In this document: positions 10,785 to 40,204 of the stretch, piece after piece
Position numbering within the stretch: the stretch's first letter is position 1
How the letters are laid out: each line of letters starts with the position of its first letter
NCBI GenBank assembly: GCA_921293015.1
Contig: OV121087.1
Coordinates: 11,358,501 to 11,422,500 of the forward strand
Length of the DNA stretch: 64,000 bases
From: Phorcus lineatus
Lineage: Eukaryota > Mollusca > Gastropoda > Trochida > Trochidae
Reading direction: 5' to 3'
The notes under the pieces: model-generated
What the model saw: the letters and a program-made list of their open reading frames with translations, nothing else
Database searches by the model: none
Told to the model about the DNA's origin: nothing
Made by a program: the position numbers and the translations under genes

Positions 10785-13700
10785 CTAGCAGGTGTATGAC
10801 TTTCCGCCACAGTGAGCAGGTACAAGGAGAGTGACCTCCCTTATGTTGTTTGCGAAGGAGTCGTCGTCACACCACAGCCACATAGTCTGTTCCTCAAACT
10901 CCTCCACACACCTGCCCACTCCGCGACCCCTACTACACTCCGGACACTCGCGCCGACTGGGGAGAAGAAGCGATGGACAATATATGAGAAACAGTGGCCA
11001 TCTTAAGATTAGTCCGAACCTTACAAGTTTACACAAATCTTCGCATTATACATTTTACTCTCATTTGCTGCTAGAGTAATCGACTGAAATTATGGATAAT
11101 ACATTTCTTCAATGGCATAATAAAATCAACAAAACCCAGCATCCCTTACTTATTTTGTCCATTATATATGTTATACATATGTAAAGAATAGACTCCGAAA
11201 ACCCTGCAATAGTTACACGAAGGGCTGTTTCTGAGGCCGTTAGGCCGAAGAACAGCCCTTCGTGTAACTATTGCAGGGTTTGAGGAGTCTATTCTACTTA
11301 AACCTAAATTCGAAACCGGTTTCAGTTTTTTCCCGACAAACCATAACTTGCACGTGGACTTTGCAATAAGCATACCTTTTACTATTGACGATATTTTCCC
11401 TAATGACGACATATAAAAGCAAAACACATGTACCGAATTTCATTGTTTTCAACTGTGTACGTGAGAGACAACGTCGGGGATATCGAGCGATTATGAAACA
11501 AATTCGATACGTTTTTTGGAATAAACTATGGATGGGTGAGTCATGGTGGAGTTGTCTAAAGTTTCATGTAATCTGTATTATTCTGTTCACATACTTAAAA
11601 AATAGTTCATGACCTAAAAGTAATCATTTTAGACTATGAAGTAAATGTTGATACTCCTGACATTTCATCCGGACATACATTCTTCGCTAGTTCCAACCGA
11701 TGCACGCAGGTTCCAACGCAACGAATAACCACATTGATGTTCCGGGCTTTCCCCCTTCAATAATGCTATTAGCTGTGATTTAGTGAAAATCTCTTTAAGC
11801 CGTCGTTAAAGTCCAAACCCCTGGATGTTTTGATCGAAGTATTTCGCAACTTTTGCGACATTAAACATGAACATAACGGAGTGTGTTTAAATGTTTATTT
11901 GGAACGATACCCTGAAGAACTTTTAGTTTTATTCTAATTGTAAAAAAACTGTAAACAGAAAACAATTATTTTTGAAAATTCCTTTTTTCTATGTTAGTAA
12001 TTTATTCTCCTTACGCGGTTTAGTAACATCTTGTGTGATGTTTCGTTTATTTCTATGCTGTATGCACAATGTATGCCATAATTTGTCTGGGGGTAGCTTA
12101 AACAGCCACTCCGTGAGTTGTTGGAGTCATATATGCCAAACTTAATCAATGGTATCATTTGATCGCCAAGTATCGACTGTAACCAAAAAGGAACATTTTA
12201 AAGCTAATTTGCTTTGTACAGTGACAATATGAAGGTAGAACGTCGCAATTATGATCGAAAACTGGACAGTGACGCACGTCAAATAGTCAAACGTAATTTT
12301 GGAGACTTATCTAAAACAGCCAGGAGGGCAGTTAGGAGTGGGTAGTGTTTGTTAGGTTATATAACTAGTATCCATGTATATTAGCGTGACATCTACAGCT
12401 CTGTGCATTTATAAGGCTGTTTTTAGATTTTCATGGAAAACTAATATTTGTCATATATATGTCTTTCGGATATAAAAAATTAAGATGTTTTGATTTTATA
12501 TCACCACGCTCTTTACTAGTTATGATTCGTTCCTCTCATGGAAAGGCGACTTTGACCGGAGAACGCGCTTTTTTGGTGGACGACAATCGTGAATTCGTTA
12601 AAAGGAATGTATTGTTGGACTCAAAAATGTCAAACTTCGTCAATGGTGTTATTCTATCGAGTATAATTGTTTTTTAAGAAAACCGGAATCCTTTTGCTTA
12701 TTCATTTTTAAGTGTCATTTATAGTTCAGTACAATAAACAGGTTAAAGTCGTGAAGTTTGTGTTAAAAAACGGACAGTGGCGCGAACATGACTCAATCAT
12801 AATTTTGGAAACATATTTACAGGAGACAAAAAGACAAACATTTGTTTATTATTTTAAGTAGGTTTTTTTTATAAATGTACAACATATTAACTGGACAAAG
12901 AATTTCGACTTTATTACATTCCAAGGACCGTTTTCAGATTCTCATTAAAAAGACGAAAATATATATCAATAATTTTAGCATTTGAGAGGTAATGATGCAA
13001 GTTTAGGGAGGTGATTTTAACCATACTGTGTCAGTTTAAACTGTGTATTGTCACAGTTTTGACCTTTGAAACAAACATTTGTTTCACAGTTGATACGACA
13101 AGTACTCTCGCCGTTTGTAAGACCTTTTCAACTGCATGTAACTGATTTCATGTCCAGCATGATTTCCAGGGAATGCGTAACCTGCACGTGCTTCACGAGG
13201 GACTTGAGGTGCTGATGTGTGTGATACTATTGACGAGTTCTCCAAACTATTGACGTGTCCTTTAATATATTGACTACTTTCTCAGAAATAATGGCGACTC
13301 TTTCCGAAATATTGACGTGTTGATGAAAACAACATACGCCTATTGATGATTAATTTAGGTTTAACTATTGTTATGTTGATTTCTACTCACGAGCAGGTTG
13401 CAAACATAGTTGGCCTATCCTTCCTGTTGACCGTGAAGCAGCGTTTGCCGTTCATTCTGAGGGAGCGGAGGGGACGTCGTCTAGCAGGGCATACCTCAGC
13501 GTTAGGTTTCACCATTCCACGCAATTGGGCCAGCTGTCTGTGTGGGTACCAGGTAGTATTTGAATTACAAAAAGTATGATTCAATTGAAAACGAAAACGA
13601 AATGAGGGAGCGAAAGGGTCGTCGTCTAATGGGACACACTTCAGTGTTCGGCTTCACCATATCTTGCAATCAGGCTAGCTGTCTGTATGGGAACCAGGTA

Positions 13701-16700
13701 GTATTTTAAATTAAAATAGGTGAGGTGATATGGTGTTTAACGCCGCCTTCAAGATTATTTCACTTATATCGCGGCTGCTAGCATTATTGCAGGGACAAAG
13801 CCCGCAACACCATAGTGGATATGCATTGCGATGAAACCTAGCGAACCATGGGTGGTACTGCGCTGAAATTCAGTGTTGCATTGCACCCAAACCTTACTGC
13901 CTGTAGAACAGTTCTCTACTGCAGACAAAGTTGCCGAGCCCCTGGCGGGATTCGAAGCCGAACGCGCTAACCACTGCGCTATCCCACCCCCTGAATTAAA
14001 ATATATATTGTCAGATGAAAAAACTTTTTAACAGAACAGTACAGAGTTTGTTTCGTATATTTGGCACCGAGGTTAATGGTGCAATGGTCATAAGGTTTGT
14101 GAAATAAAATGTATATAAGAGCGCCTGGAGCTTTTAAGAAACTCGTAAATTAAATTTGATTTTCACAAAAAGAGCTAGTTTAAAGAACAATCCATCATTT
14201 TCTGTTTTCATGAGTCACCTTTATGATTATGCTTACATAAATTGCATAAAGGTCTAAGTAGGTAATCATTACGTTGAATCTGTTAGAATTTAGGATGGTT
14301 TATAAAATGCTATTCCAATTACACGTTAGATAAGTTATTTGAATAAAAGGCGCCAGATAATCGTTTGTATCCCCTATGAATTAAAACGCAAAACATGGTG
14401 TCGATGGGCGTGGGTTAGAGACTGCCTCGAGTAATGTCTAACGAAGGAGGGAGAATTGATTGTTCTTACAAAATTTCAAATGGAAAATAATAACTTACTG
14501 TTTCGACAAAAACGAAAATAATGTAACATAAAATTATCCAATGTGCAACTTTAGGTAATACAAATAACAAACCTCATACTCACCTTGACTGAACGTTTGA
14601 TTTTTTCCTATCAGCTGGGTCGAAAACGCTGGTACCGCCAAAGAAGTCTGCACTTGACCCGAATCCGAAGTCTGCTGATCTTCGCTTTCTAATGTGTTTG
14701 GCCGTACCTGTAGATCCGAACCCTTGCAAGACGTTGAAGTCCTGTGCCACAAAGGCGCTCTCGATTCCCATCTTGGTTCTAAGGTGAGGCCGCCCTTGAA
14801 GCTCCCGTACAATACTTTCCCTACCATCAGAAACGTTTAGTGTTGTGAAAACTAAAGTTTTGACATAAATTCATGAAATCTTTTTGAGTATTTGTAATAG
14901 TAAATATCAATATATTACTAACCGCAGTAGTCCAAGGGATCTTCGTTAGTTGCAACTACGATATTACCTGAACACAGAGATCTACCAAGCTTCTTGTCAC
15001 CGTTGAATGCCCACGTTAAGCTGAGTGCTAATATGTGTGGTGTGGAATCGATTAAAAAATGTTAACTCTTTATGGGATTACATTTACTGTTTGGTTTCAA
15101 TGTATCCAAAGAATTGTGAACTTGTTTGAACATAGCTACTTCTACGAATTAATGGGTCAAGACTAGTGCTACAGGTAAATGCGTGAACACACGCATTGGT
15201 CACTACTACTGCTAAGGGTAAATGCGTGAACACACGCATTGGTCACGACTGCTGCTAAGGGTAAATGCGTGAACGCACACATTGGTCACTACTACTGCTA
15301 TGGGTTAATGCGTATACACAAATATTGGTCACGACTACTGCTACCGGTTAATGCGTTACAAATCTTATTTGTCTCGACTACTGATTCGGGTTAATGCGTG
15401 AACATACGCATTGGTCACAATTACAAGTGTTACAAATACCATTACGCTACGGATTAATGCGTGAACACACGCATTGCACATGCATTGTTCACGACTATTG
15501 CTACGGATTAATGCCTGAACACACGCATTGTTCACCACAACTAATACGGGTCAATCCGTGAACGCCGGCATGGTTCACTACTAATGCTACGGGTTAATGC
15601 TTATACAAAGGCATTAGTTACTACTACTGCTACGGGTTATTGCGTGAACACACGCATCGGCCATGACTACTGCTAAGGGTTAATGCATGAAAACATTAAT
15701 TGATCACGAAGACAATACGTGGTCTAGTTCCACGATACAAATACAACACAGACACCAAACATTGAAAATGCCACCATATTTACTATATTATAAATAACCA
15801 GACACGATCAACAGTCTTGTGGGTACCTGGGGAAACCATCAGCCTTGTCAGAGAAGTCAAAGTCTTTGCCAAGATCAACATTTCTGAAACAGTTCTTATT
15901 CAACGAAGCTGACCCCCTTCCAGATTTAGGTTGACCCCTGTGAATATTTCTGTTAAAGTTTCCTGTTCCTGACTTCGCAATTGGAACAGCTGCTCTTCTA
16001 TTGCTGTAACCGACGTTATTGTTGTTGCCTTGGTAACGAACGTTGTTATTCCTATTGAAATTATTCGGGTTTAGATTTCGACGGACGCCATTGTTGATTA
16101 TGTTCCCATGGGCGCCATTGATATTGTTGTGAACATTTCCAACACCATTACCGCTTTTGTACCCGTTGTTTACAATGGCTCTATCGTTGTTGCCAATGTA
16201 ATCTCCGCCACTTATCTGGTTGTTGTAACCATTGTTGCCGCGGCCACCGACAACGCTATTCACTCCTCCAACATTTCCCCTTCGGCCACTATAACCCGCA
16301 TTGTTTACCAGACCCCTATTAGAATTGACGTTATTGTTGATAACTGAGATACCATTGCCCCTGTGCACCTGTGCCCCATTTCCATAACTTACTTGGTTAC
16401 CGAGATTATTAATCCCGGATCTGCTGTTCCTGTATCCATTGTTGGAGCCAACTACACCCTGGTTTACGATACCATGTGTTCCAGAGCCAACATTGTTTCC
16501 ATAACCTCTGTTTGAGTTCACGATACCCTGATTCCCAATGATTTGACCATTGCCGCTGTAACCGTTATTGCTAATCTGGTTGTTGGTGACGTGTGGTCTA
16601 ACAACATTGTTGTTGCCATGAACACCAGAAATGCCATTATTGCCACTATAACCGTTGTTGGTTCTGAAACTTCCTTGAGTAAGTGGATTCCTTCTAATGC

Positions 16701-19700
16701 TACGGCCGTTCGAAATACCATTGTTAGCCCTATAACCGTTGTTAGAATTTCCAGTATGCACAGCATTATTACCGATGTTATTATTGTTGATACTATGAAT
16801 ATCATCGTTGTGAACACTTGAACCGAATCCCTGATGAACGTTATCAGTAATACCTCCCAAACCATTATTTTTGGCACCAGAGAAACCGTTTCCAGCACTA
16901 TGGAAGTCGCCAAAATTGTTGTTATTGTCATGAATGGTAGAAATTCCGTTATTACCAGAGCTGAATGATCCCTGTTTTCCAATTGAATTAAACCCGCTAA
17001 GCCCTTTACCATTGAAATCATTTATGCCATTGGTGCCATGAGACGAAGAAAATTTGTTAGATTTACCGCCAATGCCTGAAACTCCATTGTTATTGTTATA
17101 TCCAGTATTTGAACCTAGGTTTCCCTGATTTCCTACGTTATGTATTCCCCTGTTTCTATTGTTTGAACCAACTAGACTGTTTTTACTCTGGAAATTCGAA
17201 ATGCCATTATGCACAATTCCGTTATTGTTGTTATTGTTATAGCCATTACCAGATCCTACGCGTCTTTGATTACCTACGTTATGGACATTAGAGACACCCC
17301 CATTACCCCTGTACTGTTGGTTTGTATTGGATCCAATTATTCCACCCTTTCGGCTGATTCCAACATTACCAACATTGTTCCTATGAACAGCTGACAATCT
17401 ATTAGTGTTTCCACTGTAGCCATTGCCCAAATTCGAGGTACCGATTGAATGGCTATTTCCAATGCCCCTATTGAAGTCAGAGAACCCATCGTTTCCATTG
17501 AAATGCCCATCAGTTTGCCCATGGAAGTCTGCAATTCCGTTATTGTTGCCATGGACATTAGAGACACCATTGTTTTGGTAACCATTGTTTGATACCTGAT
17601 TTACGAAACCGCGTTTTCTTGAAATGCCGTTATTATTGTGAACAGACCCAACATTGCCAACTGGTCTAACTCCAGTACCACTGTAGATACCCTGTGCACC
17701 GATATTACCTGAGCCAGAAACAATTCGTCCGCCTGTGTTACCATTTGAATAACCATTGGAATTTATACCGCCCTTATTGCCGATAGCATGAGACCTTCCA
17801 AGATTGTTACGAGCAACCCCACCTACAAAATTGTTTTGTCCACTTACGTGATTTATACCCTGAACAGGCCTAAAAGTGCCCTGGAAACCGTTTCCGGAGC
17901 CTACGTTTCCGTTATAGCCATTGTTGCCTACAACACCACCCGAATGAGCCCCAGATCTGAAGTTCCCGGTTTGTTTGTTTGTTTGGGAGTTATAACCATT
18001 GCCGAGTGACCGGGCGCCTTGGTTCAACAAATGAGCATTTCCGGAGTTGAAGGTGTTACTTCCGCCATTTTGATAGCCTTGGCCAACAGACCCGCTTCCG
18101 TGGACGATAGACCCTTGGTTGCTGTAACCCTGTCCTCCAATATTGTTGACAGACCTTCCGCCAACAAGGTTACCCCTGTGAATTCCCCGGTTCCGGTTGA
18201 AGCCCTGTCCCCCAACGGAACTGCCTCCATGCAGATTTTGGTTCTGATTCTGGTAACCCTGTCCCCCGACAGACCTGCCGTTTACAGACCCGACACCGCG
18301 GACTCCGGGGACTTGGTTGCTGTAGACGCTAAACTGATCGCTGGCAAGAGCACATGCAGCTAACAGAGAACAGATTGCGATAAGGACCTGAAACATATTT
18401 GGTTATTACCGTAAGAGGGAATCATTGAAACAACTTACAAAACTTAAATAGTCAATATAGTTGTAAAAAAGAGATAAACTAAAATATTGATAAGCATAAA
18501 GAAATTACTTTTTCTAATGGTAGATTACGTGAAGGTTAAATTATCCGAACTTCATTGTAGAAAATTAATATTTATTCTTTATATTATATAGTGTTCATAC
18601 ATAGAGTAAACATATTTTTCAGTCATGAATTTGAGATTCCACTTTTTCTTATATACTTCAAAAACTTCATACCATTTTAATATAATCGATAGTTAAATTT
18701 GACTAGTAGATTGTATCAATGAAAGTCAGACATGGATAACTTCACCAGTATTAGGTTGTGTTGAGGTTTTGTCGTCGCTACGGTATTTGTACAACTATTC
18801 TAATCCTTCGGTTTTAGCTACAAAACGTTCTTCCGTTGCATTCTTAGTGATATAAGTATATATAAGTAAATTCATTTTCGCCACTATTATCGGCTCCTAG
18901 CACTTTGTCGATGCAGACATGTCATTAATTTCATGCAATGCTTCAAAGAGTAAGAAATAAAATACGGGAAGAGGGAGAAAATCGCACGATCGAGACGATC
19001 GCAAAATGAACCCCCCGCCAAAGTATTTTGCATACACAAAGAAATTGTCTTTCCATAATAGCATAAACAAATCCGTTTTATTATTAAACAAAATCGGCAC
19101 CAACTAATCAAACATTTTATAAACTAATAAACTGTAACTGAAAATATATCATTTCATTATCATATATCAATTTATTGTATCTGCACTATTGTCAAGATTA
19201 TATCAATAAGGTTCACTAATCAATCAATCAAATTATCCCGAGTTGCAATAATTTTAGGGTTACTTGAAAGTTGGAGAACCTAAATACTGAAGACATGTTT
19301 CTATATTAAACGATTTTACGTGACATTGTCCTTAACCGCCTGTTTTGCTTTTTCTTATATTGTTAAATTTTAATGAATCCCAATAATCAATTATATTAAT
19401 AATATTAAGAGCTATTAATCGATTAATTTTTTATTTAAAACAGGTTTATACCTAATTTATTGTTAACATAATGATATGTGAGGTGATTCATTTGACAATG
19501 AATTGAATTTTGTTGAAAGTGAAATAAAAGTGGAAATCTGTCTGCAAATTGTTTGTAAATAAACATATCAATATATCAAAACCTATGCTTTGTCCAAGCT
19601 TCAATCGTCAGAAATAGTACGAAATAAGAAAGCATTATTGAATTTGTCAAAATCCAAAGCATAAGCCTGGGGAATAAAACTGCGAGAAGTATTGATATTG

Positions 19701-20297
19701 AAGGTTTCTGCTAAAATCGTTCATTCGCATTCATTCATTCAGATGTGTGGCACAAAATCCAAAAGTGAACAAAATATACGGTCACTTTGTTGTGAATCAA
19801 ACTATTCAAAACTGAGACTAATTCTTCAATCGATTACCAAAAACACATCTCTAAAATCTGACAGTTGAAGAAAAATTTGAATGTTCTCTAAACCTAAACA
19901 GATATTGGATTAACAACAATTCCAAAACCTAACGCAAACCAATTGTCCTCTCATTGAGGTGCTAAAATACTAAAGTATTGAAAGCGAACTGATACTGCCT
20001 TACAGCGACCAGTAAAATTGAACTGATAATAAAAGAGCTAACAGCCCTTAAAATTTACGAACAGACTGATTGAGCTGTTATATCAGTGTTTATTTATCTT
20101 TACAACAAGAATGAAAATATACTTCATATAACGTAAAAATTAATAAAAATATGTAACCTATCAAAAGTAATAAAATGCATCTGCATGTGACACTAGTGTG
20201 TATACAAGGCAATAAAACAATCATAACATGGCTCTCATTTTGCATTTAACAATAGTTTCTTTCTTATTGTGAAGGTGAAAGATGCACTTACCTTCAT
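10785..20297 (-). CDS. Gene A: prepropeptide with 850-residue Gly-Asn-rich region and C-terminal cystine-knot-like domain
   Basis: Five coding exons join in consistent phase: 20292-20297 (ATG AAG, donor GTAAGT), 15827-18387, 14584-14820, 13391-13537 and 10956-10785, giving about 1,040 residues. The signal peptide is MK + VLIAICSLLAACALAS. Exon 2 encodes about 830 residues of irregular Gly-Asn repeats (NNGYxGNxGI, VHxNNN) and ends CFRNVDLGKDFDF. Exon 3 carries a furin-type IRKRR site. Exons 4 and 5 carry the Cys domain: C1 in EVCP, Cys after 16 residues, ATC after 14 more, then C-x4-C-x2-C-x8-C-x12-C with MWLWC, PAHC and a terminal Cys. The C-x-C seen in genes B and C is replaced by C-G-G, so one conserved Cys is missing. 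Exon 4 has the same length (147 nt) as its counterpart in gene C. An in-frame ATG at 18396 sits inside the exon 2 acceptor and is probably not used. I infer a secreted, furin-processed ligand; neurotrophin/Spatzle kinship is suggestive only. The Gly-Asn part also resembles shell-matrix proteins in composition. Confidence 0.8.
11185..11295. repeat. Nearly perfect 45-bp-arm inverted repeat (foldback element) in the last intron of gene A
   Basis: The left arm 11185-11229 and right arm 11251-11295 are reverse complements at about 43 of 45 positions, with a 21-nt loop that itself contains GGCC...GGCC. The RNA would form a long hairpin from either strand. It may be a small foldback transposon or a hairpin-RNA source. 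Confidence 0.9.
12060..12460 (+). repeat. Dispersed repeat, copy 2 (intron of gene A)
   Basis: Collinear with 12,560-12,970 and 3,690-3,930: 'CCAAACTTAATCAATGGTATCA', 'GACAGTGACGC', 'CGTAATTTTGGAGACTTA' and 'GGCTGTTTTTAGATTTTCAT'. Together with copy 3 it forms a loose tandem pair of units of about 500 bp. Confidence 0.55.
12560..12970 (+). repeat. Dispersed repeat, copy 3 (intron of gene A)
   Basis: The second member of the pair: 'CAAACTTCGTCAATGGTGTTA', 'GGACAGTGGCGCG', 'CATAATTTTGGAAACATA' and 'CCGTTTTCAGATTCTCAT' appear in the same order and orientation as in copy 2. Confidence 0.55.
13225..13350. repeat. Cluster of ATTGACG-type motifs
   Basis: Five WATTGACK or close variants (about 13227, 13247, 13267, 13308 and 13339) lie within 125 bp, just 3' of exon 4 of gene A in its sense direction. 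The half-site TGACG is CRE/ATF-like, but simple local duplication explains the cluster equally well. Confidence 0.3.
13603..13709 (-). pseudogene. Decayed tandem duplicate of gene A exon 4
   Basis: The minus strand repeats the sequence of the true exon 4 (13391-13537) at an offset of about 145 bp, including the acceptor TACAGACAG and the start of the Cys region (KPNTEVCPIRRRPFRSL against KPNAEVCPARRRPLRSL). It has an in-frame TGA after QLA and diverges before the second Cys, so it lacks the rest of the exon and its donor. It is a broken exon copy lying upstream of the functional one. The AG acceptor is still present and could act as a splicing decoy. Confidence 0.8.
13719..13993 (-). mobile_element. 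tRNA-derived SINE with 10-bp target-site duplication
   Basis: On the minus strand the element starts GGGGTGGGATAGCGCAGTGG, which contains a Pol III A box (TAGCGCAGTGG). A B-box-like GCTTCGAATCC follows about 30 bp later, then a body ending near GGTGTTTAACGCCGCC read on the plus strand. AATTAAAATA is repeated at 13709-13718 and 13994-14003 as the target duplication. The insertion lies directly beside the decayed exon 4 copy. Confidence 0.8.
14923..15020 (-). other. Possible 98-nt cassette exon of gene A
   Basis: The segment is flanked by an AG acceptor (CACTCAG) and a GTTAGT donor. It accepts the phase of exon 2 and reads S-LTWAFNGDKKLGRSLC...DPLDYC-G. Its length is not a multiple of three, so including it would shift exon 3 into another frame (KVLYGSFKGGLTLEPRW...) and end after a few codons of exon 4, before the first domain Cys. 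Skipping it restores the furin-site frame. It may be a regulated exon, an unrelated relic or chance. Confidence 0.35.
15165..15705. repeat. 43-bp minisatellite with internal palindrome (intron of gene A)
   Basis: About 13 degenerate copies of a unit of roughly 43 bp with consensus GGGTTAATGCGTGAACAC followed by ACGCATTGGTCAC and GACTACTGCTAC. Each unit holds the inverted pair AATGCGTG / CACGCATT, so the array can form a row of short hairpins. Confidence 0.9.
18400..20280 (-). other. First intron of gene A
   Basis: AT-rich sequence between the ATG micro-exon (20292-20297) and exon 2 (from 18387). No other coding potential is seen; the short frames around 18,900-19,100 are chance. Confidence 0.5.
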
Positions 20298-20374
20298 TTT
20301 GGCCCGATTCAGTGTGAATGGCTTTGCTTGTACAGTGGTTGTGTGTAAATGCTTTTAAAGTGTAGGCTATTTCT

Positions 20375-25803: not shown

Positions 25804-28800
25804 TCAACACTTGATGACCATGCAGCTACAGTAGGCCGGGTACTCCATATACTCGGGTGTGATCACGTGACCCTGATGAGGACAGTAGGCCCACACCCAG
25901 GCTGAGAGATGCTGGGATACGCACTCGGCTGAACCGTGTTCTGAACACACGTTGCACTCGGTCTGTCTGCAAACATGAGTTACAACATTTCTGAGTCTCT
26001 GGTTAAACATATATTTTAACTACCTCTACAAACTGAATCCTAACCTCTGTCATACTTTCCATATGTGCACATATGCATTTGTCACAACCATTTTTCAGCA
26101 TAAGTTACAATTTTTCGGCGCCTTAACGTCATGAACAGGTTTTTGTCATTTTATCGAAAGAGGAATAGGCCGTTGAACCATAAGACGTTTTCAAGCATCC
26201 CATAAGTCAACAGTTGAATTATAATTCTAATGAAACTAATGCCATACCTTTTTAAATGAGTGACTATTTAAAAACATTTTTATCATGTAATTACGTATCA
26301 CCTTATATCTAGCATGGTTCGATATAATTATTGCACAATTGTTCTGTTGATAAACCTTTACAGTATACGCATCAAAGGTTAATAGTGTGTCTTTGATGAA
26401 ATACATATTGTGAAATGGAAATTCAAAAGCCTGTGAAGTACCGTCAAATAAAATTTTTAAGACATAAAAATCATTAACATGACTGCCTCATTGCAATACA
26501 ATTTTATTTCTTACCCCCCTCCCTAAATTATCCCCCCTCTTATCCCAACAGTTCTTAAAGACCTCCCCGAAGTTAATTAACAGCATTTGTCTGCTTACTT
26601 GCACTTGTCCATCTCGACAGCCTGTACCTCTGGCCTGTACAGGTAACACAGCTTATCATTCTTGTAGAAGCCTGTCACCATGTGACGGTCCGGCTCACAC
26701 ACCGACTTTGGCTTCTGTTTGCTGTACACGGATGGGGGTGGTGGTCTGTATAAAATAAAATTTGGTATACCTTAATGAACAAACAAAAATCAACTCTAAA
26801 TCTTCTGACCCTGCATTTCATGCAATGAAACAAGTTGACTATCTATAAAAACTTCTTCGTCTTCAACATAACAGCTTCAAGAATTCCTCTAAAAGAAGTT
26901 ATAATCTTCAAATGAAATAATACAAGGATCACGCGAAGAGGCATATTTTATTAAAGTTGCAAGCAGTCACAAAATGGTATGAATTCCCTGCACTGCAAAC
27001 AGTATGTCGTACTAACATATATGAAAGCAGTAATGACTAGTTAACCCTAAAATGCCATGATTTTATTTTAATTCACGATTTTCATAAGTCATAAAGAATT
27101 AAATATTACTACTAAAGAATAAATGTTTGTACGTTTTTAAAAATATTTGATAAATTATGATACAAATTTTCCTTATTTCACCAACTCAATTTTAGGTACA
27201 GATACATATCGATGTCAGCTATTGTTATTACTAGAAGAGGTTTAAATCCAAATAAATATTATCAAGGTCATCTGGGAGCAGGTGTTGCAGTTGGAATCAA
27301 TTATTACATTTGGAGCACTAAAGCCAACCTGTTTCGAAAAGTTATCAGATTTGACTCACACTGCCATCCGTTTCCGTCTGAAGATAGTGTCGAAGCCATT
27401 CAGAAAGCCTGTGTTATCATGCTCTTTCATAAAGTTGGAATGGAAGCCGATAGGACGGTTGGGTTGGATGACGTTGTTGAATTTTCCTATTCCACCCGTG
27501 AACCCGTTGGCGTTATTGGAGATCTTGGCGAACATCTTGTTAACGTCGAATTCTTTAGGGGGGTCTTCGATCTGTCGGGTGAAATGTTTAATTTGTGAAA
27601 CATATAGATAACCAAGCGAATTTCTTTTCAATAACCTTACCCCTTCATGTTATAAAAGCATAAATGCTTAAACAAAAATATTACCCAAACTGTGCTCCAA
27701 AATATTACCAATTTCTCCCTCAATGTATCATTCTTGCTACAATGTTACAATAATGCAAGAACCCTTCAGAGAAAAAGGTACCAAAACCAACATTTTAATC
27801 AACACCAAAACACAATAATCAACATCATTATCTATATGACTAGTTGATTGTACTGTAATTTACTTACCTTAGTTAGTTTACCGAGTGATTTCTTCAGTTT
27901 AGGATGGACAGCCCGGTGGGTTCCAACATCCTTTACCGGCAGCGAGGGGTGCAGAGACTCCGACTCTGATGGGTGGGGAGCCTGCAGGGAAGACTGGGGG
28001 ATGGCGATTTCCTGAAAAGCAGGGGCGGCGTCAGGTTTTGGGTCCAAGTACTTGTTAAAGACATACTGGGCCAGGGGACTCTTCTTTATGGCAAACTCCA
28101 TCGCGGCACTGGAAGAATCCATAGAAAAAAAATCAGTGTACGGTAACAAATTCTTGATCTGTTTTTACATCAATAACTATGAAAATGCTAAGGATTTAAT
28201 TTTAGTTTAAAGTAGTTAACGATTAGACTGCTTTGCCGTCGATGTGTATTTGATCTATATTTAAAACATTGACCACACTTATGACAGCTAGATAATTTCA
28301 TGTTTGTATGATGTGCTCTTACCTGACGTTATCAAACTTTGTAGTTTGTGGATTGTATTTGTTATTGTTAACGAAGTTGTATGAACATTTCGAATCTTTT
28401 CTTTCATCCGTAGAAGAGAAGTCTTGTCTTAGAGCAGATGGCTGAGCATCACCACTATTGGTAACATCGACGGCAGGGGACGATGAACTTCCGACCTCAC
28501 CATTGGCAGCACTCCGGGCAGCGTCCTGTACTGACGTGGTAGGCGATGGCTCTGTCGTAGTGACAGCCTCACTTGTCTGTGTTGAGGTAAGGTTTGAGGT
28601 CGATGTAGTTGTTGCTATCGTTGTGGTAGATGTCGTTGTGGTATCGACGTCAGATGTACTTGCAGGGTCGGTTGATGTACTACTGTGTATCACTGACACG
28701 TTTTCGGTCGTAGAGGACGTCGTTTGTGGTGATGTGTGAGTGTCCATGCCACGACACAAAATCAGCGCCGTGGCAGCGACGACACTAAACAGTAGCCCAC

Positions 28801-30052
28801 GCTGAAAAGTTGACAAATTTTCTAGCTATGAATTGACACCAGTAAGTTGTAGTATCGTTTAAAGAAATAATGTTGATATGACATTGGAACTGAACAAATC
28901 ACGGATAATTCGGATTATTCATTTAGTTATAATAAAAAAAAAACAATGAGAAAAGATTGGATGTCTTTGATAATCGTGTTTATTACTATATAACCATTTA
29001 TAAAATGTTTAAGAAAACAAATGCAGAAAAGTTTTGCCATTGCAAGTTCAGTTTAAACTTACATGAACATTTTCGACAAGGTTTTTAAAGTACATATTGG
29101 AAGCTATAACGACTATAGAATGTTTAATATTAAATGTCTTAGTTACATTAAATTAAAATAACTGAATATGCCCTATATACACAAAATATTCTTTACTATA
29201 ACAAATGACAAAGGAACACACTAACCATTGTGCTGTATAATATTCCCAGCAGGTAAACACGACAGAGGACATTCAGGTTGTCTATGTACAGGTGTTCCTT
29301 ATATTTCTATCAGATTCTGACCACATACTCGGTTTTATGACTGCCAATAAAATTATTCTTGATTCTGAAGTTACCTAAATACATATCAAATCCACTTGGT
29401 AATTATCAAGCTAAAACTTCAACATTTCACAGTAAGGGGATTTGGTTATCAGGTTTTCACTGTTTTCATAGGCTCGCTGTGTGAAAACATAAATATTTTG
29501 AAAAAAGTTTTAGATCTAGACACCCTATATTTATTTCAATATGTAAACCAGTATTATCTACATTTTATTCAATTATTATCTCAAATGAAACATTACAACT
29601 TTGACAACTTATATGACTTTATAATGATACAGAATAGAATTACTCTATTGTATTTAGTTGTATGCTTTTACATTTATACAAACGGAAGTCTCAAAGTGAA
29701 CAATTACAAATTGATACCTCGAATGTATATAGATCGTGGTGAGGGTATAGAGACATCAATCGACATTGCCAGGTTCCCCTTATTCTCCAGAAAAATGTTC
29801 CAAACAAGAGACATGTGGGAATATTTTTCAAACGGTTTTACAGTCACAAGCAAAAAATCACGGCTTTGGCTTCATATCATACGCTATTTTATTGTTATCC
29901 ATCTTTGGATATCTTTGAACTAAATTTACTTTATCAGAACCTTTAAGAATTAATATACAAAGCATTTTTGTAAGTAGGAAGTCTGTTTACAATTTTAACG
30001 TATTGAAACTCGAATTTGAACAGAGAAAGAAACTCACCCTGTCTGTCACCAT
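25804..30052 (-). CDS. Gene C: prepropeptide with Ser/Thr-rich region and C-terminal cystine-knot-like domain
   Basis: Six coding exons join in phase to give 418 residues: 30038-30052 (MVTDR, donor GTGAGT), 28323-28801, 27868-28108, 27360-27571, 26599-26745 and 25804-25966. The signal peptide continues as RGLLFSVVAATALILCRG. A mucin-like Ser/Thr-rich region (about residues 24-110) follows, then a CSYNFVNNN motif. The prodomain has SPLAQYVFNKYL and DVNKMFAKI, both matched in gene B (NPLAKELFKKM, DINSMFDKI). FRRKR at the end of exon 4 is a furin-type site. The released domain of about 105 residues has ten Cys: VCEP, C after 16, C after 14, C-x4-C-x2-C-x7-C-x12-C (WAYC), then PAYCSC and the final C before the stop. 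The family relation to A and B is firm from spacing and exon borders. A neurotrophin/Spatzle-type secreted ligand is my inference. The open frame can be read 15 nt upstream of 28801, but that part is the acceptor. Confidence 0.85.
26000..26590 (-). other. Last intron of gene C
   Basis: Lies between the exons ending at 26599 and starting at 25966. Nothing else is seen apart from a C-rich run near 26,510-26,545. Confidence 0.5.
28810..30037 (-). other. First intron of gene C
   Basis: Non-coding AT-rich intron between the ATG micro-exon and the signal-peptide exon. A 175-codon plus-strand open frame (29,396-29,923) is AT-rich, lacks protein-like composition and lies antisense in the intron. Confidence 0.5.
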
Positions 30053-33000: not shown

Positions 33001-34890
33001 CACAGCAGCAAGGAATATGAAGTAAAGTTACTGATGTATTATAAGCCGTAGTGCAAAAATGAATCTAGAGAAAATTACATAACCATATACTTAAATAGTA
33101 CAATCAAGATACATTTTCCTACTTTGAAACCTTGCTTGCATTAACATTTTCACTTTTTTTCTCTTCTATAACAACGCTGAGACGAAAAACAAAGAAAAAT
33201 CAAATGGCTTAGAATGACACCCCGCCTATTATGACTGCATGAAGTGATAACGTGACCTAGTGTTTCCTTTGTTGTTTCCTCTAAAAAAACTAAGCCTTTT
33301 CGTCTTACAATAAGAAAAACACCCATTGCCTGGATAAAAAGAAGTATATTCTAATTATAGGAAGGACAACTTTAAATGATTTGTACTAACATTTATAATT
33401 AGCTTTAAAACATATTCTGCAACATACAATTGGTGAAGGCATATTTAATAATGCTAGCGCTGTGTATTTGGTGGCGTGTGGACATTTTGTGATAGCGACA
33501 TCTCTGTGAGGTGATTTTCAAAATAAAATGCTCGATACAAACCGCCAAATCCAATCAAAAGGTTTTACATTTTACACTATCGTGACTCCAAGGACATAAA
33601 ATGACAATAAATTTCGATCTGAAGAAATTTACAAGAGAAAAAATTCTCTTAAAACCACTTCCCATTGCAACGTTTAACAATTAACTAATGACTTAATTAG
33701 ACTAATAATGCTAGTGACAATCCCAAACATCTCGATCTATTTTGTCTGCTTAGCTGCAATTAGATTACTATGATGTTCGAAGCGTAATGTTAATAATTCA
33801 ATACGCTTCCTTAGACTCCATGGATTCATAATAGCCTCCTTGATTCTTCGTGTGTCTTCATCATATTGTCATTGAGCTTATCCATGTATATCTACATACA
33901 CTGACGAATACAACCTGGCTCTTTATGTCAGAGTGGATAGATAGTGTAAATTGGTAATATTATTGTAAAGTATTAGTTAAGTCACTTTAAAAAAGCACAT
34001 GCTGAGTTGATTTGTATTTCAATTTATCCATGGTTGTACCAAACAACAGAATCTCTGAATCGATATATAACACGCTGGTGTATTAGATTTGTGTATCATG
34101 AAGCGGCTATATATAAGCGGTTATATTTTTTAGTTTTGTTTTCAAATGGTTAGAATGATGGAGTTTTTTTTCGAAGTGTCCAAACCGATTTTTCTTTCAT
34201 TGTACATTCGTCTTTTTTTCGTCCGATGATTCGTATAAATATTCTTGCTCGACAGATCGGAGCCCTATCATTTCTTCTGGTGTAATCCTGGTAGTTGGCA
34301 ACCTCTGTCTTGTAATCTTAGGTAATTGTGCAATCAGCGACATGGTTTCACAATTTAAGTTAATCTAACAGTGATGGAAACTTAAGTTTGCGATACTCAC
34401 ATTTATTTGAAAGATTGAAAGATATTAAAGGCACAAACATACAACATTGTTTCCTAATTTACAACAGATGTTCGGATAATGCACATCTCTCGATATGTAT
34501 AACGACCCGAACTCAGTTCCTCTATCATCATGTTGCAATAAAAGTACGACATCAAAGATACATACGTTTGCATACAGACGGAAAGTGTAAAGAACACCTA
34601 ACATCAATAGAGATTTAAGTAAAGTGAATGCCTATGACCTATAATTGCTTTCCTGGCAATGAATACAAATATTTAAAGAACAGTTATCCATGTTGCAAAT
34701 TTTCACCAAGGGGTAACATTTGAGATCAACGATTATGTGAGAAGACATGAGCCGAGTTACATAGTTGGCTTGACTTGCTGGCACTGAAAACACTATAATA
34801 GTTACAGCTATTTGATGAATATATCGATTCAGTTGACATTGATAGCCGTCATAATATATAGAACGCAAATGAAAAACTAAAACACATATC
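30060..34890. other. Intergenic region, no gene seen
   Basis: Contains only small structures: a doubled 'ACTACCCTCATTAYATTGTCT' at about 31,315-31,362, a degenerate tRNA-like block near 31,510-31,560 and a triple 'GGAAATCTA' at 32,578-32,602. No coding exon is supported. Confidence 0.45.
31510..31560 (+). repeat. Degenerate tRNA-like block, SINE relic
   Basis: An anticodon-arm-like CTGA-CTTTAAA-TCAG is followed by a T-arm-like GGCGTCGGTTTGATTTCCGTC. The D arm and acceptor stem cannot be found, so this is a relic and not a tRNA gene. Confidence 0.3.
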
Positions 34891-34898
34891 TTCCACAA

Positions 34899-34904
34899 TT
34901 TATT
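34899..34904 (-). terminator. Candidate AATAAA of gene B
   Basis: First AATAAA on the minus strand after the gene B stop, about 290 bp downstream. Plausible but not decisive. Confidence 0.3.
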
Positions 34905-35195
34905 TTGTAAAAAGACAGAATGTATTTCGTACTCATACTTCGTATATGACCTTGAATAATTATTACAAACAAAGAGTTAGCATGATAAATGGGAATTTGC
35001 ATTGTATAAAACATCATTTTGACTTGAATTTGCGTAAACTTTGCTGAAGTCAAGTTTTTATCAAGGCTACTTATAGACCAAATCAGTATGTTTAAACAAG
35101 AAATTTCCCTTTTATATCTTAAGATATAATTATGAAAATAAATGGTCTGTTTATCAAATTTGAAAGACGTTTCGTAACAATGTTTACAGATCGTT

Positions 35196-38100
35196 TCAAC
35201 ATGAGATGGTTTTGCACACACAGTATGCTGGATATTCTACGTATTCCAGCTCCAATTTACGTGCATTGGGTCCGGCCTGACAGTAGGCCCACATCATAGT
35301 CGACTGCTTCTCGGCCACGCACCTGCCCGAACCCCCACAATGTCCACACTTCTCCTGGCTGCAACGAGTACAAACCAACCTTACATACATATAAATGAAT
35401 GGTTTAAGTCACTGTCCCTGAACAAGCTAGGCAAACGGTTAATCATTTTCATCAATTTCCCCTGTCAGGTTTCATAATTCGCTTGCATTTTAGCCCTCGA
35501 TATTGAATTGCAGAAATCGGTACCCTTATAAACTTTTCTACGACTTGCCTTACTAGTTATATCGGCAAAGTAACATTGAATTCCTTCCGATGGGAAAGTG
35601 ATAGTCATTTTAAACATTTTAAGCTAATATGATTTAGAAAATAAGGACTTTAGTGAAATCAGATTGTGATATGGACTTACAGTGCATTGGTAGACAAAGT
35701 CGAAAGTGTTCCCACAAAAAAAACCAGAACTATTTTACCATTTTTGACCATGTTTAGTATTTAAGGTTATTTTACCCAGAAATGAACGCACCTGCAAGTA
35801 GCGAGTTTATGACCCTGGATCTCAGGCTTATATACGTAGCAATCACTGTTGTGTTTCTTGAACTTGCGGATGTAGTCGCTCTTGAAGGGACACACAGTCT
35901 CAAGCTGGTTCTTGAAGCCTTGGCCTAAACCGTAGGTGGTACTGGAAGCGGATATTTCATCGTGTATCATTTACAATATATATTTAACATTAAGAATAAA
36001 TAATAATGTAAACCAAAATGTAATAAGCATTTTTAGTGAAATTCAGACTTATCATAAGGAACAGCTGTTTACCAAATTTCCTACGTCACAAATTTAGAAA
36101 TAGATATAGAAATATAACTTTTAATGTTTCGAAATTTCTGAAAAAATTACACAGTGTAGTATCTGTATCGACAATGGTCTCACTTGATAATACAAACGAC
36201 GTGATATTGCGCAAAGAGCATAAATCATAAAATGTCGCATAATCAATACTATATGTTTCGTCCGTGCAATAGATAAATGGTCACAATAAACAATCTTAGA
36301 TTATTTTTTCATTTGTAGATTGTTTAAACAATCTGCAGATTGTGACATTCCTTAAATGGTTTGTGACAAATTCATTGTAAAAATATCACTCACTCAGCTT
36401 GTCTCCTTTTCCTGAAGTGGAAACCTCCAAATCCTCCAACTCCTCCGAGTCCACCGTCACCGCCTGAGAAAGGATCACGACTCTTAAAGGACGACTGCAG
36501 CTGACCGGGTCCAAATTGCCTACCTGGATTGATGGCGTGGTCGGGGAAGCTCGGTGTGTCGTGTGGGAATTCTCCCAAATTCTCGTTATTGGCGTGCTGG
36601 CCGATCTTGTCAAACATAGAGTTGATATCGAGACCCTGGGGGCTCGGATTACCCACGGCTTGTCCGATCTCAGCGATACCGGGGATACGTCTTCCGGCGC
36701 CCGCAAATCCTGGGGTGTGAGAGGGTCCACTGGCGCCCGGAGGGACGACGAAGTGCTCTCCCCCTGCGTTCTTTGACTGGCTCATCTTCTTAAACAGCTC
36801 CTTGGCAAGAGGGTTGTTCTGTGCAGCCCCCTCGACCATGAATCTGCAGGTTAAAGATGAATAAAACACCGTTTTGTTACTTGATAGTTATATATTGGCT
36901 GCAACTGAGATGCAATGTCGTCATCACCACAAGATGTCTTATGCGTTTCATGAATTAGCATGTTGAATCATTTTCATTTCTTATTTATTATATGTTGAAA
37001 ATTTCCTTTTTCATGACTGTAACATTAACTATATGTGTCTTTTAACGTTAATTTTTTTCCGCCATGCTTTAAGATAAATTTAATAGAAATATGCTTATTT
37101 AAAATATTATGGCTGAGTAAACTGTTACAACACATCCGTAATTTTGACGTCACAATTGTATGGGGGCTGCCCCGACCGCAATGGTGATTATCTGTCAAAC
37201 ATCATTTTAGAAAATTAACGTGTTGTTTACATTGGTTTTAATAAACGAGAAAACATACATATATAGTATATAGTACTTTCGTTTGATATCCTTTATGAAA
37301 CTTTGCTGCACGTTACTTACGTAGGATATCCAAATCCATCAGAAGATGCCTGGAAGGTGTTAGGGTTTGACACAGTAAACGAACATTGTCTACTGCTTGG
37401 TCCATTTCCGGAGCTGGAGCTGAAGGACAGCGAGTTATCATCAGCAGAAGGTCCCTTGTTTGCAACGTTTTGGGATCCGTCCTTCTGTGCAGCAGCCTTA
37501 GCATCTTGAGCACCAGCTTGTGCTGATGCCTGTCCTGAAGATTGCGCTGAATTAGTGTCAGAGTGTGGGGTAGGGGGAGGGGGTGCCCCGTGAGGGTCAG
37601 GGTGCTGAATAGCGTGCGCATCATCTCCATGAACATCAGGATGAGGGATATCAGGGTGGGGGAGAGAGGAATGGGGGATAGATGGGTGGGGGAGAGTTGG
37701 ATGAGGGAGAGTGGGGTGGGATTCCAAAGGATGAGGCAGAGCGGGGTGGGAGTCTGAAGGATGAGGCAGAGTGGGATGGGAGTCTGAAGGATGAGGCAGA
37801 GCGGGGTGGGAGTCTGAAGGATGAGCGTCTGAGGGGTGAGGGTCTGGCTGTGGGGGAGGGGGTCCTAAGGGGGTAGAATGGGGAGCCGCGTCTTCATGGA
37901 CTACTGCTGTTCTTGAACTAGGGACTTTAGGAGCTACCTCCACAGCAGTGTATACTGTTTGTAGGAGCAGGAACAGCACCGTAGCCGGTACCCATTTCTG
38001 AAATTTATAAAGGATATAATTTGCATAAATAATTCGAAATATAAATTTGAGTATTAATTAATTTGTGTCTGGATTGTACATGTATATCTTCTTGTGTGTG

Positions 38101-40204
38101 GGCATTTTTTTAAAGCGCATGTAGATGATCGGACTGAGTAAGTGTTATTTACAGTTTACCGTTGTTCACGATAATACACATAACAAGTTCAAAATGCAGT
38201 GAATTATGTTCCTGCTCGTTGTGATATATGAGGCATGACAGCATTTTCAGTTTATATTACGTTTTTGTAACGATTGTCACGATATTACAAAAATAATGAT
38301 TGTTTTTTTCATAAAGAACAGTTATGGCACTATATCGTTTAATTTTTGTCAGATGCATTAAATTATTTTGGTCATGCGCAGTGGTGGAGAAGCGGAGACC
38401 CCTAGCTGACTCCGTTAAACCCGTAGAGACAAATATGTCGGTAACTAAAGTCACTTTGAAGGGCCAATTAACTGTTTAATGTTAATTTCACAACTTCCGT
38501 GTGATAAAGTATAGCGTTCTTTAAGATTCAAGGGCGGTTTATTACATTTATATTGAAATGGTTTATTGTCAGTTGACAAGGCAATTCGACACACCTTTAG
38601 TGATATACCTTATGTCTGTCATTATTAAACTTTCTAATGGTTTGTTACTTTGATGTGTTTGTCAGATATTCCCCTGGAGCATATTGATGTTTGTAAAATT
38701 TATGAACAGTTGACTATGTTTGTATTCTCCTAATGGTTTGTAAATCGTAGTGTTGTTGCATATACATTTGCAAGTTGATGAATAGCTAACAGTTAGAATA
38801 ATTTCTTGTTAAACTTCACAAAAGAGTGAATATTCGCCCATATCAATGCTATTTGTTTACCTTTGACACTAAATAGTTCAGAGTAAGCAAGTTAACGTTG
38901 ACAATATATTATATTTGTTTCGGAAAATTACATTATGCAAACGATACTCGCATCATATAAAACCATGGAAAAATGTAAAACTATCAACTGTTGTTAATGT
39001 ACTTTTTCTTAAAGCATTTTTGTAAAAACAATAACAAAAACAATAACGATGGCGATGCGATGGTGGTGTTGATAATAAAATGTTCGCTGCTTAAAAAAAA
39101 TCGCTTGTAAGCCCACATGAAACCTATTTCATAGCTCTAAAAAATACAAGTTCTAAAGTATAAAGTTCTTACTTTTTAATACAAATTCATTCAAACAAAA
39201 ACGTTCACCAAATGTGAGTTGCTATACATGAAAATTGTGTATGAAGATGTTTCGTTTTATATGGAAGAAAAAGAAAATATGTAACCTGTATATTAATATT
39301 GTGAGGATATTAAACATTCTGGTCTCGATTATAATTGTTTTGAAAGGCAACACAGCCGTCCTTTTGGGTAACAAGTCTCAAACTATTGTTCAAATCATAT
39401 TTTTGTAATATCCAAGACATAAATACATAATACGAACATAAATTGAAAACCTCATACATTTAAAGATTTTAACTAATATCTCACAGAGATAATGAAAAAC
39501 GAAAAGTATAGTGCAACAAAAATATTTGATACTAAATATTTGGACAAACAAGAAGACCATTAATGAAAGATATTATTCAGTAATGTCAATATTTATATTA
39601 CAAAATTATGTAAAAACCATATACAATATGAAGTATAAATATCTGAAATCCCAGTCCACATATACAATATGAATGAAGTTTGAGTAAACCCACTACAAAC
39701 GGTGACTGATAAAAGTTGAGTTGAATGGATGAAAAAAACCATGTAAACAATGAGCGTTGAACTGGATTGAATATATTTTTTTATATAGATCTTTGGTCCT
39801 AATTAGTATTTAAGTCATCAGTTTTGATAAATATCAAGTATATTTAATGAATGTCCTTATTGTGGGTTTTTAAGTCGTCATTTTGTTGATGCTTAGTTCT
39901 AATTAAGAATGTTATAAGTCTTTATAAGCAGATGGTATTTTCTATCGTACCTTAAAAAACATGAAAAGGATATGAAAGAAATAATGAAACCCCATAAATG
40001 CTTGGATTTGGATATAAGTATCATAACTCTCACTTCAAGTGGATTATCTATTGTTTATTCGCCATTTCAACTTGGTTACTTGAACTTTATTCTCTATCAT
40101 TTCGTATAGTTCAAGCTTGAAATGACAGCTAAATAAGTAAAAAATTATTCTTATAAGGTTCACCCTTGTGGCTGGGTGGTATAAAGCCGACCTACCTGCT
40201 GCAT
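35196..40204 (-). CDS. Gene B: prepropeptide with His-Pro repeats and C-terminal cystine-knot-like domain
   Basis: Five coding exons join in phase to give 482 residues: 40196-40204 (MQQ, donor GTAGGT), 37321-37997, 36394-36843, 35792-35941 and 35196-35358. The signal peptide is MQQ + KWVPATVLFLLLQTVYTAVE. A His-Pro-Ser region follows with repeats such as PHPSDSHPALPHP, then a CSFTVSNPN motif shared with genes A and C. Exon 3 carries NPLAKELFKKM, DINSMFDKI, a Gly-rich segment and the furin-type FRKRR site. The released domain of about 107 residues has ten Cys: VCPF, Cys after 16, ATC after 14 more, C-x4-C-x2-C-x5-C-x12-C (MWAYC), PAYCVC and a final C. The spacing from the first to the third Cys (31 residues) is identical in A, B and C. 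The W-x-x-C plus C-x-C ending recalls neurotrophins and Spatzle, but the extra Cys and low identity leave open a separate molluscan ligand family. Confidence 0.85.
35950..36390 (-). other. Intron of gene B
   Basis: Lies between the furin-site exon (to 36394) and the first Cys exon (from 35941); no other feature. Confidence 0.5.
36850..37315 (-). other. Intron of gene B
   Basis: Lies between the exons ending at 37321 and starting at 36843; AT-rich with no other feature. Confidence 0.5.
38000..40190 (-). other. First intron of gene B
   Basis: AT-rich intron between the ATG micro-exon and the signal-peptide exon; no coding potential seen. Confidence 0.5.

What the first reader, a model, noticed from the sequence alone, without database searches (positions are those of the whole stretch)
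10785..40204. Three tandem paralogous secreted ligands with one conserved ten-Cys domain and entirely different low-complexity pro-regions
Seen: genes A, B and C share the micro-exon start, signal peptide, a Cys-Ser/Phe motif after the low-complexity part, furin-type RKRR/RRKR, and two last exons with matching phases. The first three domain Cys are spaced 16 and 14 residues apart in all three, followed by C-x4-C-x2-C and, after a variable gap, C-x12-C. Known: neurotrophins and Spatzle are furin-processed cystine-knot ligands with W-x-x-C and C-x-C near the end. Inferred: this is a divergent, locally expanding ligand family. The pro-regions (Gly-Asn, Ser/Thr, His-Pro) have been replaced or grown independently, which is unusual for a growth factor precursor.
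Basis: partly seen in the sequence, partly recalled or inferred. Interest (0 to 1): 0.88.

Follow-up and report, generated by a model that had tools for sequence, protein, structure and literature searches.

The report
Mollusc cystine-knot cytokine-like genes, elastic pro-regions
Three neighbouring genes in what looks like a mollusc genome belong to a family of at least fifteen that share a cysteine-rich, cytokine-like end piece, while a stretch near their start varies from about 10 to 1,000 amino acids; they may be unlabelled signalling proteins related to insect Spaetzle and to interleukin-17.

Summary
Genes A, B and C (minus strand, 10785-40204) splice cleanly into secreted-looking precursors of 1040, 418 and 482 aa with a micro-exon start, an RKRR/RRKR site and two last exons joined in phase 2. 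One correction: B and C have ten domain cysteines, A has nine.

The array belongs to a larger family: at least 15 genes at eight sites, 13 on one contig. The 11 members read upstream also share a pro-region core (C-x17/18-[GD][YF]P in 10 of 11); mainly the linker before it varies, 10 to 1002 aa. So the pro-regions were not wholly replaced.

No Pfam, NCBIfam or PDB sequence profile recognises the domain. Pairwise HMM alignment puts it above cysteine-preserving shuffles against Spaetzle and against this genome's IL-17 genes, which do not detect each other. Defining features of each family fail, so I file it under neither. Best reading: a divergent cystine-knot cytokine family with a Spaetzle-like precursor. 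Main rival: a crosslinking domain on matrix proteins, since four low-complexity secreted-looking ORFs lie next door.

The parts
40196..40204 (-). gene C exon 1 (micro-exon, MQQ)
   Evidence: phase 0 into exon 2
37321..37997 (-). gene C exon 2: signal peptide, 186-aa Pro/Ser/His-rich linker, CSFTVSNPNTFQASSDGFGYP core
36394..36843 (-). gene C exon 3: pro-region, ends with RKRR
35792..35941 (-). gene C exon 4: domain C1-C3
35196..35358 (-). gene C exon 5: domain C4-C10 and stop
30038..30052 (-). gene B exon 1 (micro-exon, MVTDR)
   Evidence: one of three ATG-plus-donor candidates listed, chosen for phase and position
28323..28801 (-). gene B exon 2: signal peptide, 120-aa Thr/Ser-rich linker, CSYNF... 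core (no GYP)
27868..28108 (-). gene B exon 3: pro-region
27360..27571 (-). gene B exon 4: pro-region, ends with RRKR
26599..26745 (-). gene B exon 5: domain C1-C3
25804..25966 (-). gene B exon 6: domain C4-C10 and stop
20292..20297 (-). gene A exon 1 (micro-exon, MK)
15827..18387 (-). gene A exon 2: signal peptide, 817-aa Asn/Gly-rich linker, CFRNVDLGKDFDFSDKADGFP core; weak donor GTACCC
14584..14820 (-). gene A exon 3: pro-region with RKRR
13391..13537 (-). gene A exon 4: domain C1-C3
10785..10956 (-). gene A exon 5: rest of the domain (nine-Cys form) and stop

Best explanation
A, B and C encode secreted cytokine- or growth-factor-like precursors of a divergent cystine-knot family. SHOWN from sequence: signal peptide (by eye), variable linker, Cys-GYP and exon-3 pro-region core, an RxKR site, then a ~90-residue domain with 9-10 Cys split over two exons in phase 2. 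INFERRED: the signal peptide is removed, the pro-core keeps the ligand latent or helps it fold, and furin-type cleavage frees the domain in A, B, C and one further member. Members without RxKR would need an extracellular trypsin-like protease (as Spaetzle-1 does) or act uncleaved. The domain forms a knot C1-C6, C3-C8, C4(or C5)-C9. Because the central inter-chain Cys of Spaetzle is absent, a dimer would be held by C5 (aligned to Cys-59 of Aedes Spz1C) or by C2, C7 or C10. The target would be a Toll-type or IL-17-type receptor. The linker tunes solubility or matrix retention and is free to expand.
For: At least 15 genes with the same Cys order. Same layout in the 11 members read upstream: C-x17-[GD][YF]P in 9, C-x18 in 1, B without GYP; two bases then GT after that place in 11 of 11. 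hhalign of the 11-member profile: Aedes Spz1C 22.5, pairwise E 0.0019, 0 of 150 Cys-fixed shuffles as good; Dm+Aedes 21.3, 0 of 150. This genome's IL-17 (10 sequences): local 20.7, 2 of 60 and 0 of 50; global 14.3, 0 of 60 and 1 of 50. Yardstick: neurotrophins against Spaetzle, accepted relatives, score 14.5 with 6 of 50 locally. Pro at the Spaetzle Pro136 place in 14 of 15. C12 16.945 Mb lacks C9 together with C4 and C5, as expected if C9 pairs with one of them. In a duplicate pair the four exons keep 88.6-91.3% identity against 73% over the locus.
Against: Library scans give only chance-level matches: Pfam CMD E 0.18 for one of 11 members, IL17 E 0.5 for the consensus, a cytomegalovirus family E 2.1; NCBIfam SecE E 0.22, A-C only; PDB none or E 2.1. 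Drosophila Spaetzle alone is weak (3 of 60; 12 of 100 with 15 members); Spaetzle in global mode 8.3, 1 of 60 and 1 of 50. Global mode is soft: IL-17 against noggin also reaches 1 of 50 and the family against PTTH 2 of 50. E-values are pairwise and about seven comparators were tried. Spaetzle searches of this genome found nothing, without a working positive control. RxKR is absent in 7 of 8 other members, whose exon-3 ends were not fully resolved. Direct genome hits between the window genes and the other 12 members are weak except A with 16.945 Mb (E 0.12-0.97; C at 0.03). Low-complexity neighbours without the domain. No structure, no transcripts.
Confidence: 0.6

Rival explanations
1. Extracellular matrix, mucus or shell proteins: the low-complexity stretch is the working part and the Cys domain is a C-terminal disulfide crosslinker, as the cystine-knot tails of mucins are (recalled).
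For: Linkers of 817 aa (Asn/Gly) and 1002 aa (Pro/Gln) dwarf the domain. Four low-complexity secreted-looking ORFs (D-G, 224-799 codons) lie downstream on the same strand; E and G are 32% identical over 642 aa. In C12 47.04 Mb a His-Pro repeat lies after the RYKR site, inside the would-be mature part.
Against: Three members keep the domain with linkers of only 10, 28 and 28 aa (the last two are a recent duplicate pair), so domain and pro-core, not linker, are what is kept. A, B and C place RxKR between linker and domain. No domain match in the 40 kb holding D-G.
Confidence: 0.22
2. A diverged subfamily of molluscan IL-17.
For: Most of this genome's own IL-17 sequences read have nine Cys in the order of C1-C9, with similar gaps in most intervals. 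Global profile alignment 14.3, 0 of 60 and 1 of 50 shuffles. The only Pfam match of the consensus is IL17, E 0.5.
Against: 35 IL17 matches in this genome at E<=1, 29 over cut-off, none at any of the 15 loci (candidates capped). In the six loci read the IL-17 domain lies in one open frame; here it is split. No C-P-W (C-[WYF] instead) and PxxC-x-C in place of VGCxC. Human IL-17 alignment 9 of 100 and 4 of 100. The first test with own IL-17 used 3 of 6 loci, since my filter dropped 3, and was weak: 8 of 60, and 27 of 60 with 15 members. No conserved pro-region in IL-17 (recalled).
Confidence: 0.1
3. A cysteine-rich secreted effector, for example antimicrobial, with a fold other than a cystine knot.
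For: Strong divergence (B 37% and A 26% identical to C), tandem duplication, no recognised family.
Against: Profile matches over 58-89 columns in Cys register to two cystine-knot cytokine families.
Confidence: 0.08

Closest known systems
Spaetzle family (Toll ligands; Drosophila Spz C-106, Aedes Spz1C)
   Same: Signal peptide, pro-domain, cleavage site, C-terminal domain; in-register match of C3, C4, C5, C6, C8 and C9 with Aedes Spz1C; Pro before C8 (Pro136) in 14 of 15
   Different: Extra Cys (C2, C7, C10); no Cys beside Cys V (0 of 15); no aromatic at site 133 (0 of 15); not found by PF16077
Crustacean Spz7/Spz8 (Daphnia; PMC2772990, passages read)
   Same: Expanded; a Cys between knot Cys III and IV and, in Spz7, one between IV and V, as C5 and C7 here
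   Different: Sequences not compared here; no counterpart of C2 and C10 in the passages read
Molluscan IL-17 (this genome's copies, L055-L064)
   Same: Nine Cys in the same order in most copies read; global profile alignment above most shuffles
   Different: Domain in one open frame, C-P-W and VGCxC motifs, other gaps after the second and third Cys; other loci, 22 of 29 on C15
Neurotrophins
   Same: Cystine-knot ligands with a pro-domain (recalled)
   Different: Profile match only over 15-36 of the columns; global score at noise, 30 of 50
Spaetzle homolog of the clam Paphia undulata (2015; seen only as a title in a reference list, and as a mention in PMC7773633)
   Same: Mollusc gene named spaetzle homolog
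   Different: Paper not read; sequence not compared, so it may or may not be the same family

Membership tests
Spaetzle | Detected by the Pfam Spaetzle model PF16077 | tested here: not met
   11 members and the consensus scanned, no Spaetzle match; genome search 0 matches, but its controls rang nowhere
Spaetzle | Six knot Cys in order, ending C-x-C | tested here: met
   By alignment only: C6 and C8 in 15 of 15, C9 in 13 of 15, C4 column 12 of 15; C1 and C3 in 11 of 11. Gene A and C12 16.945 Mb lack C9. Pairing not tested
Spaetzle | Extra Cys next to Cys V (inter-chain Cys-94) | tested here: not met
   0 of 15; feature from passages of PMC2772990 and PMC9427763
Spaetzle | Pro136 before Cys V | tested here: met
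   14 of 15; C12 1.760 Mb has Ala; site placed by me from the passage
Spaetzle | Aromatic residue at site 133 | tested here: not met
   0 of 15; Aedes Spz1C has Val there too
Spaetzle | Profile similarity above Cys-preserving shuffles | tested here: met
   0 of 150 for Aedes and for Dm+Aedes; but Dm alone 3 of 60 and 12 of 100
Spaetzle | Binds and activates a Toll receptor | not testable with these tools
   needs protein work
IL-17 | Detected by Pfam IL17 PF06083 over its cut-off | tested here: not met
   None of the 15 loci among 35 matches; consensus 11.2 bits against cut-off 24
IL-17 | C-P-W ... VGCxC motifs as in this genome's IL-17 | tested here: not met
   C-[WYF] and PxxC-x-C instead; of the ten IL-17 read not all have C-P-W
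IL-17 | Nine-Cys order of this genome's IL-17 | tested here: met
   By eye; gaps differ most between the second and third (22 vs 14) and third and fourth Cys (1 vs 4); A and C12 16.945 Mb lack C9
Neurotrophin | Whole-domain profile similarity | tested here: inconclusive
   Local 15.3, 2 of 50; global 1.5, 30 of 50
Noggin / PTTH | Profile similarity | tested here: not met
   Noggin 45 of 50 locally, 30 of 50 globally; PTTH 20 of 50 locally but 2 of 50 globally
Cystine-knot fold | Knot in a structure | not testable with these tools

The most novel reading that the evidence does not exclude
An intermediate cystine-knot cytokine family that links the Spaetzle/neurotrophin type and the IL-17 type: a Spaetzle-like preproprotein and Pro-x-x-C-x-C ending combined with the nine-Cys order of molluscan IL-17. 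It would suggest that the Toll-ligand and IL-17-ligand lines share one ancestor, and that a pro-region can carry an elastic linker that grows a hundredfold while the rest stays fixed.
Probability: 0.2. Interest if true: 0.85.

Novelty: new variant of a known kind. Interest (0 to 1): 0.62.

Why it matters
Endogenous Toll ligands outside arthropods are little described: PMC7773633 (2020, passage read) says that no spaetzle homolog had been described in non-arthropods except in one clam. A family of at least 15 genes that Pfam does not recognise, with a precursor laid out like Spaetzle, gives concrete candidates to test against mollusc Toll and IL-17 receptors. The pro-core beside a linker of 10 to 1002 aa is also a natural series for asking what a disordered pro-region does.

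Tried and rejected
Noggin (its PIQYPIISECKCSC end resembles EYPAYCVC): profile scores at or below shuffles, rejected. PTTH: local score at shuffle level, rejected. Pfam, NCBIfam and PDB sequence scans gave only chance-level matches. Comparing the 5' flanks of A-G gave only two short weak matches, so a common origin of the starts of A-C and D-G is not shown. A tree of 11 domains joins B with C (98/99), leaves A and 7 of 8 inner branches unresolved and warns of long branches. Weak genome hits on C15 25.25 Mb, C7 50.36 Mb and C5 25.08 Mb were read and are not members; C15 33.96 Mb and C2 14.36 Mb were not read and not counted. Paper searches; no title, abstract start or passage that I saw describes this family, but the library holds open papers only and cannot match accented spellings of Spaetzle.
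Full report
WHAT IS THERE. The three genes exist as described. Spliced models on the minus strand: A = 20297-20292, 18387-15827, 14820-14584, 13537-13391, 10956-10785 (1040 aa); B = 30052-30038, 28801-28323, 28108-27868, 27571-27360, 26745-26599, 25966-25804 (418 aa); C = 40204-40196, 37997-37321, 36843-36394, 35941-35792, 35358-35196 (482 aa). Every intron is GT-AG and no model has an internal stop. The junction before the last exon is phase 2 in all three. Domain Cys gaps: A 16,14,4,2,8,12,19,6; B 16,14,4,2,7,12,17,1,4; C 16,14,4,2,5,12,19,1,4. A therefore has nine, not ten: CGGKSYTC in place of C-x-C-x4-C. In the domain B is 37% and A 26% identical to C. RKRR, RRKR and RKRR lie 47, 18 and 19 residues before the first domain Cys of A, B and C.

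THE FAMILY IS LARGER THAN THE ARRAY. The window lies on contig C12 of a 958 Mb genome. Its mitochondrial contig carries COIII, ND3, ND2, COI, COII and ATP6 in that order (genes named by eye), which I recall as the ancestral mollusc order; no call named the species. The domain of C found eight further loci, at weak E-values of 0.12-0.97, which I accepted after reading them: five at C12 3.696-3.735 Mb, one at C12 47.04 Mb, two on C1. The last exon of C12 3.704 Mb recovers seven of those as well as C12 1.760, 1.768 and 15.25 Mb at E 0.03 or better, C itself at 0.03, and C12 16.945 Mb at 0.75 (read). The 16.945 Mb exon finds A at 1.1e-5 and nothing beyond known loci. That makes 15 members at 8 sites, 13 of them on C12. 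Six of eight sites on a contig with 5.4% of the genome has binomial probability 6.6e-7. Both domain exons were read for 11 members, only the last exon for 4. Across 15 last exons C6, C7, C8 and C10 are present in 15, C9 in 13, C5 in 14, C4 in 12; the C4/C5 columns are loosely aligned. C12 16.945 Mb shares A's ending and also lacks C4 and C5, which fits a C4/C5-C9 disulfide; A itself keeps C4 and C5.

THE PRO-REGION IS NOT WHOLLY REPLACED. In the 11 members read upstream, exon 2 holds a signal peptide (by eye), a linker and then a Cys motif: C-x17-[GD][YF]P in 9, C-x18-GYP in C12 3.734 Mb, and Cys without GYP in B. The exon ends two bases after the following codon boundary in 11 of 11. A loosely conserved exon 3 ([AI]I..EL..RP.L in its clearest form) follows. 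The linker between the signal-peptide core (chosen by eye) and that Cys measures 817 (A), 120 (B), 186 (C), 1002 (C1 75.88), 406 (3.696), 79 (3.734), 59 (3.724), 40 (3.718), 28 (3.704), 28 (C1 28.98) and 10 aa (47.04), of different composition. In the 10-aa member a His-Pro repeat sits after the cleavage site. RxKR is found in A, B, C and C12 47.04 Mb and not in the exon 3/4 stretches of the other 7, whose exon-3 ends I did not fully resolve. In the pair C12 3.704 / C1 28.98 Mb the exons are 88.6-91.3% identical against 73% over the locus; of 213 codons 31 differ silently and 25 change the residue. This supports the exon models.

WHAT KIND OF DOMAIN. Library scans give chance-level matches only: Pfam CMD E 0.18 for one of 11 members, IL17 E 0.5 for the consensus, NCBIfam SecE E 0.22 for A, with A-C scanned, PDB none or E 2.1. 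Profile-profile comparison was set against a null that keeps every Cys and permutes the rest. 11-member profile: Aedes Spz1C 22.5, 0 of 150; Drosophila+Aedes 21.3, 0 of 150; Drosophila alone 15.2, 3 of 60; NT3 7 of 60; PTTH 16 of 60; NGF 17 of 60; noggin 52 of 60; human IL-17 alignment 14.6, 9 of 100, single sequences 2 to 34 of 40. This genome's IL-17: 3 sequences 8 of 60, and 27 of 60 with 15 members; 10 sequences (of 29 over cut-off) local 2 of 60 and 0 of 50, global 0 of 60 and 1 of 50; Spaetzle global 1 of 60 and 1 of 50. Controls: neurotrophins against Spaetzle, accepted relatives, 6 of 50 locally and 1 of 50 globally; IL-17 against Spaetzle 44 of 50 and 18 of 50; IL-17 against neurotrophins 2 of 50 and 0 of 50; IL-17 against noggin 14 of 50 and 1 of 50; family against PTTH 20 of 50 and 2 of 50. 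So the family stands above noise to both Spaetzle and IL-17, which do not see each other, but global mode also lifts doubtful pairs, the E-values are pairwise and several comparators were tried. This is good, not conclusive, evidence for a cystine-knot cytokine.

SPAETZLE OR IL-17? For Spaetzle: the in-register C-x2-C-x5-C of Aedes Spz1C, the Pro before C8 (Pro136 of PMC2772990) in 14 of 15, and the precursor layout; PMC9427763 (passages) calls the Spz1 pro-domain natively unstructured and says that Spz2 and Spz5 are cut by furin-like proteases. Against: no Cys beside Cys V in any of 15, no aromatic at site 133 in any of 15, no PF16077 match, and no hit in this genome with the Aedes protein (no positive control). 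For IL-17: the nine-Cys order of this genome's copies. Against: none of the 15 loci is among 35 IL17 matches, the domain there lies in one open frame in the six loci read, and C-P-W and VGCxC are missing here. I therefore claim 'works like a cystine-knot cytokine' (0.6) and file it as neither. By chain numbering the second Cys of Aedes C-N-F-C is Cys-59, reported as an added inter-chain bond; C5 aligns to it, while the central inter-chain Cys-94 has no counterpart. An inter-chain C5 is a testable prediction.

NEIGHBOURS AND THE MATRIX RIVAL. Downstream on the same strand (window 1520 to -34999; loci L026-L029) lie four low-complexity secreted-looking ORFs: D 672, E 799, F 224, G 775 codons. 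E and G are 32% identical over 642 aa, D and E match at 4.5e-5; a link to F is not shown. No domain exon was found in that 40 kb. They make the matrix-protein rival serious (0.22). Members with linkers of 10-28 aa and the RxKR site between linker and domain in A-C speak against it.

LITERATURE. PMC7773633 (passages) states that no spaetzle homolog had been described outside arthropods except in the clam Paphia undulata; that clam paper was seen only as a reference. PMC2772990 (passages) describes expanded Daphnia Spz7/8 with extra Cys. PMC2586362 (passages) gives the DNT1 pro-domain as residues 31-498. PMC4807771 (two passages) leaves a snail TLR's ligand open. Long disordered pro-domains are thus known; the hundredfold range beside a kept pro-core is what is unusual here.

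Noticed in passing
window 1520 down past 1, and L026-L029 (window -34999 to -495): Four low-complexity secreted-looking ORFs (224-799 codons; Ala/Gly/His-, Gly/Asn-, Ser-rich) on the same strand as A-C; E-G and D-E related, no Cys domain. Possibly shell, mucus or similar matrix proteins.
   Followed up: partly
window 13603-13719: Partial copy (78%) of the stretch over the start of gene A exon 4, just upstream of the real exon; in-frame TGA by my reading, so a dead exon duplicate.
   Followed up: partly
window 11185-11295: Inverted repeat with 45-nt arms, 96% complementary, 21 nt apart, inside the last intron of gene A; MITE-like.
   Followed up: no
window about 13930-13995, minus strand: tRNA-like stretch in the intron between exons 3 and 4 of gene A, SINE-like, seen by eye.
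   Followed up: no
window 15155-15709: 43-bp minisatellite (about 13 copies) behind gene A exon 2, whose donor is weak; read-through would give a protein without the Cys domain.
   Followed up: no
window 46537-53110: 1616-codon ORF without a Pfam match that looks like a mobile element, followed by a 33-bp repeat (49 copies, 51391-53018) that is open on both strands (586 and 560 codons).
   Followed up: partly
G000 C12 3.704 Mb and C1 28.98 Mb (L017, L023): Inter-chromosomal duplicate of one family gene with introns kept.
   Followed up: yes
G000 C15, C37, C1, C39, C11, C32: 29 IL-17 matches over the Pfam cut-off, 22 of them on C15: a large IL-17 expansion.
   Followed up: partly
L034 (G000 C74) about 6300-9200: Mitochondrial contig carries a ~2.9 kb simple repeat that reads (Tyr-Met)n in all frames shown.
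   Followed up: no
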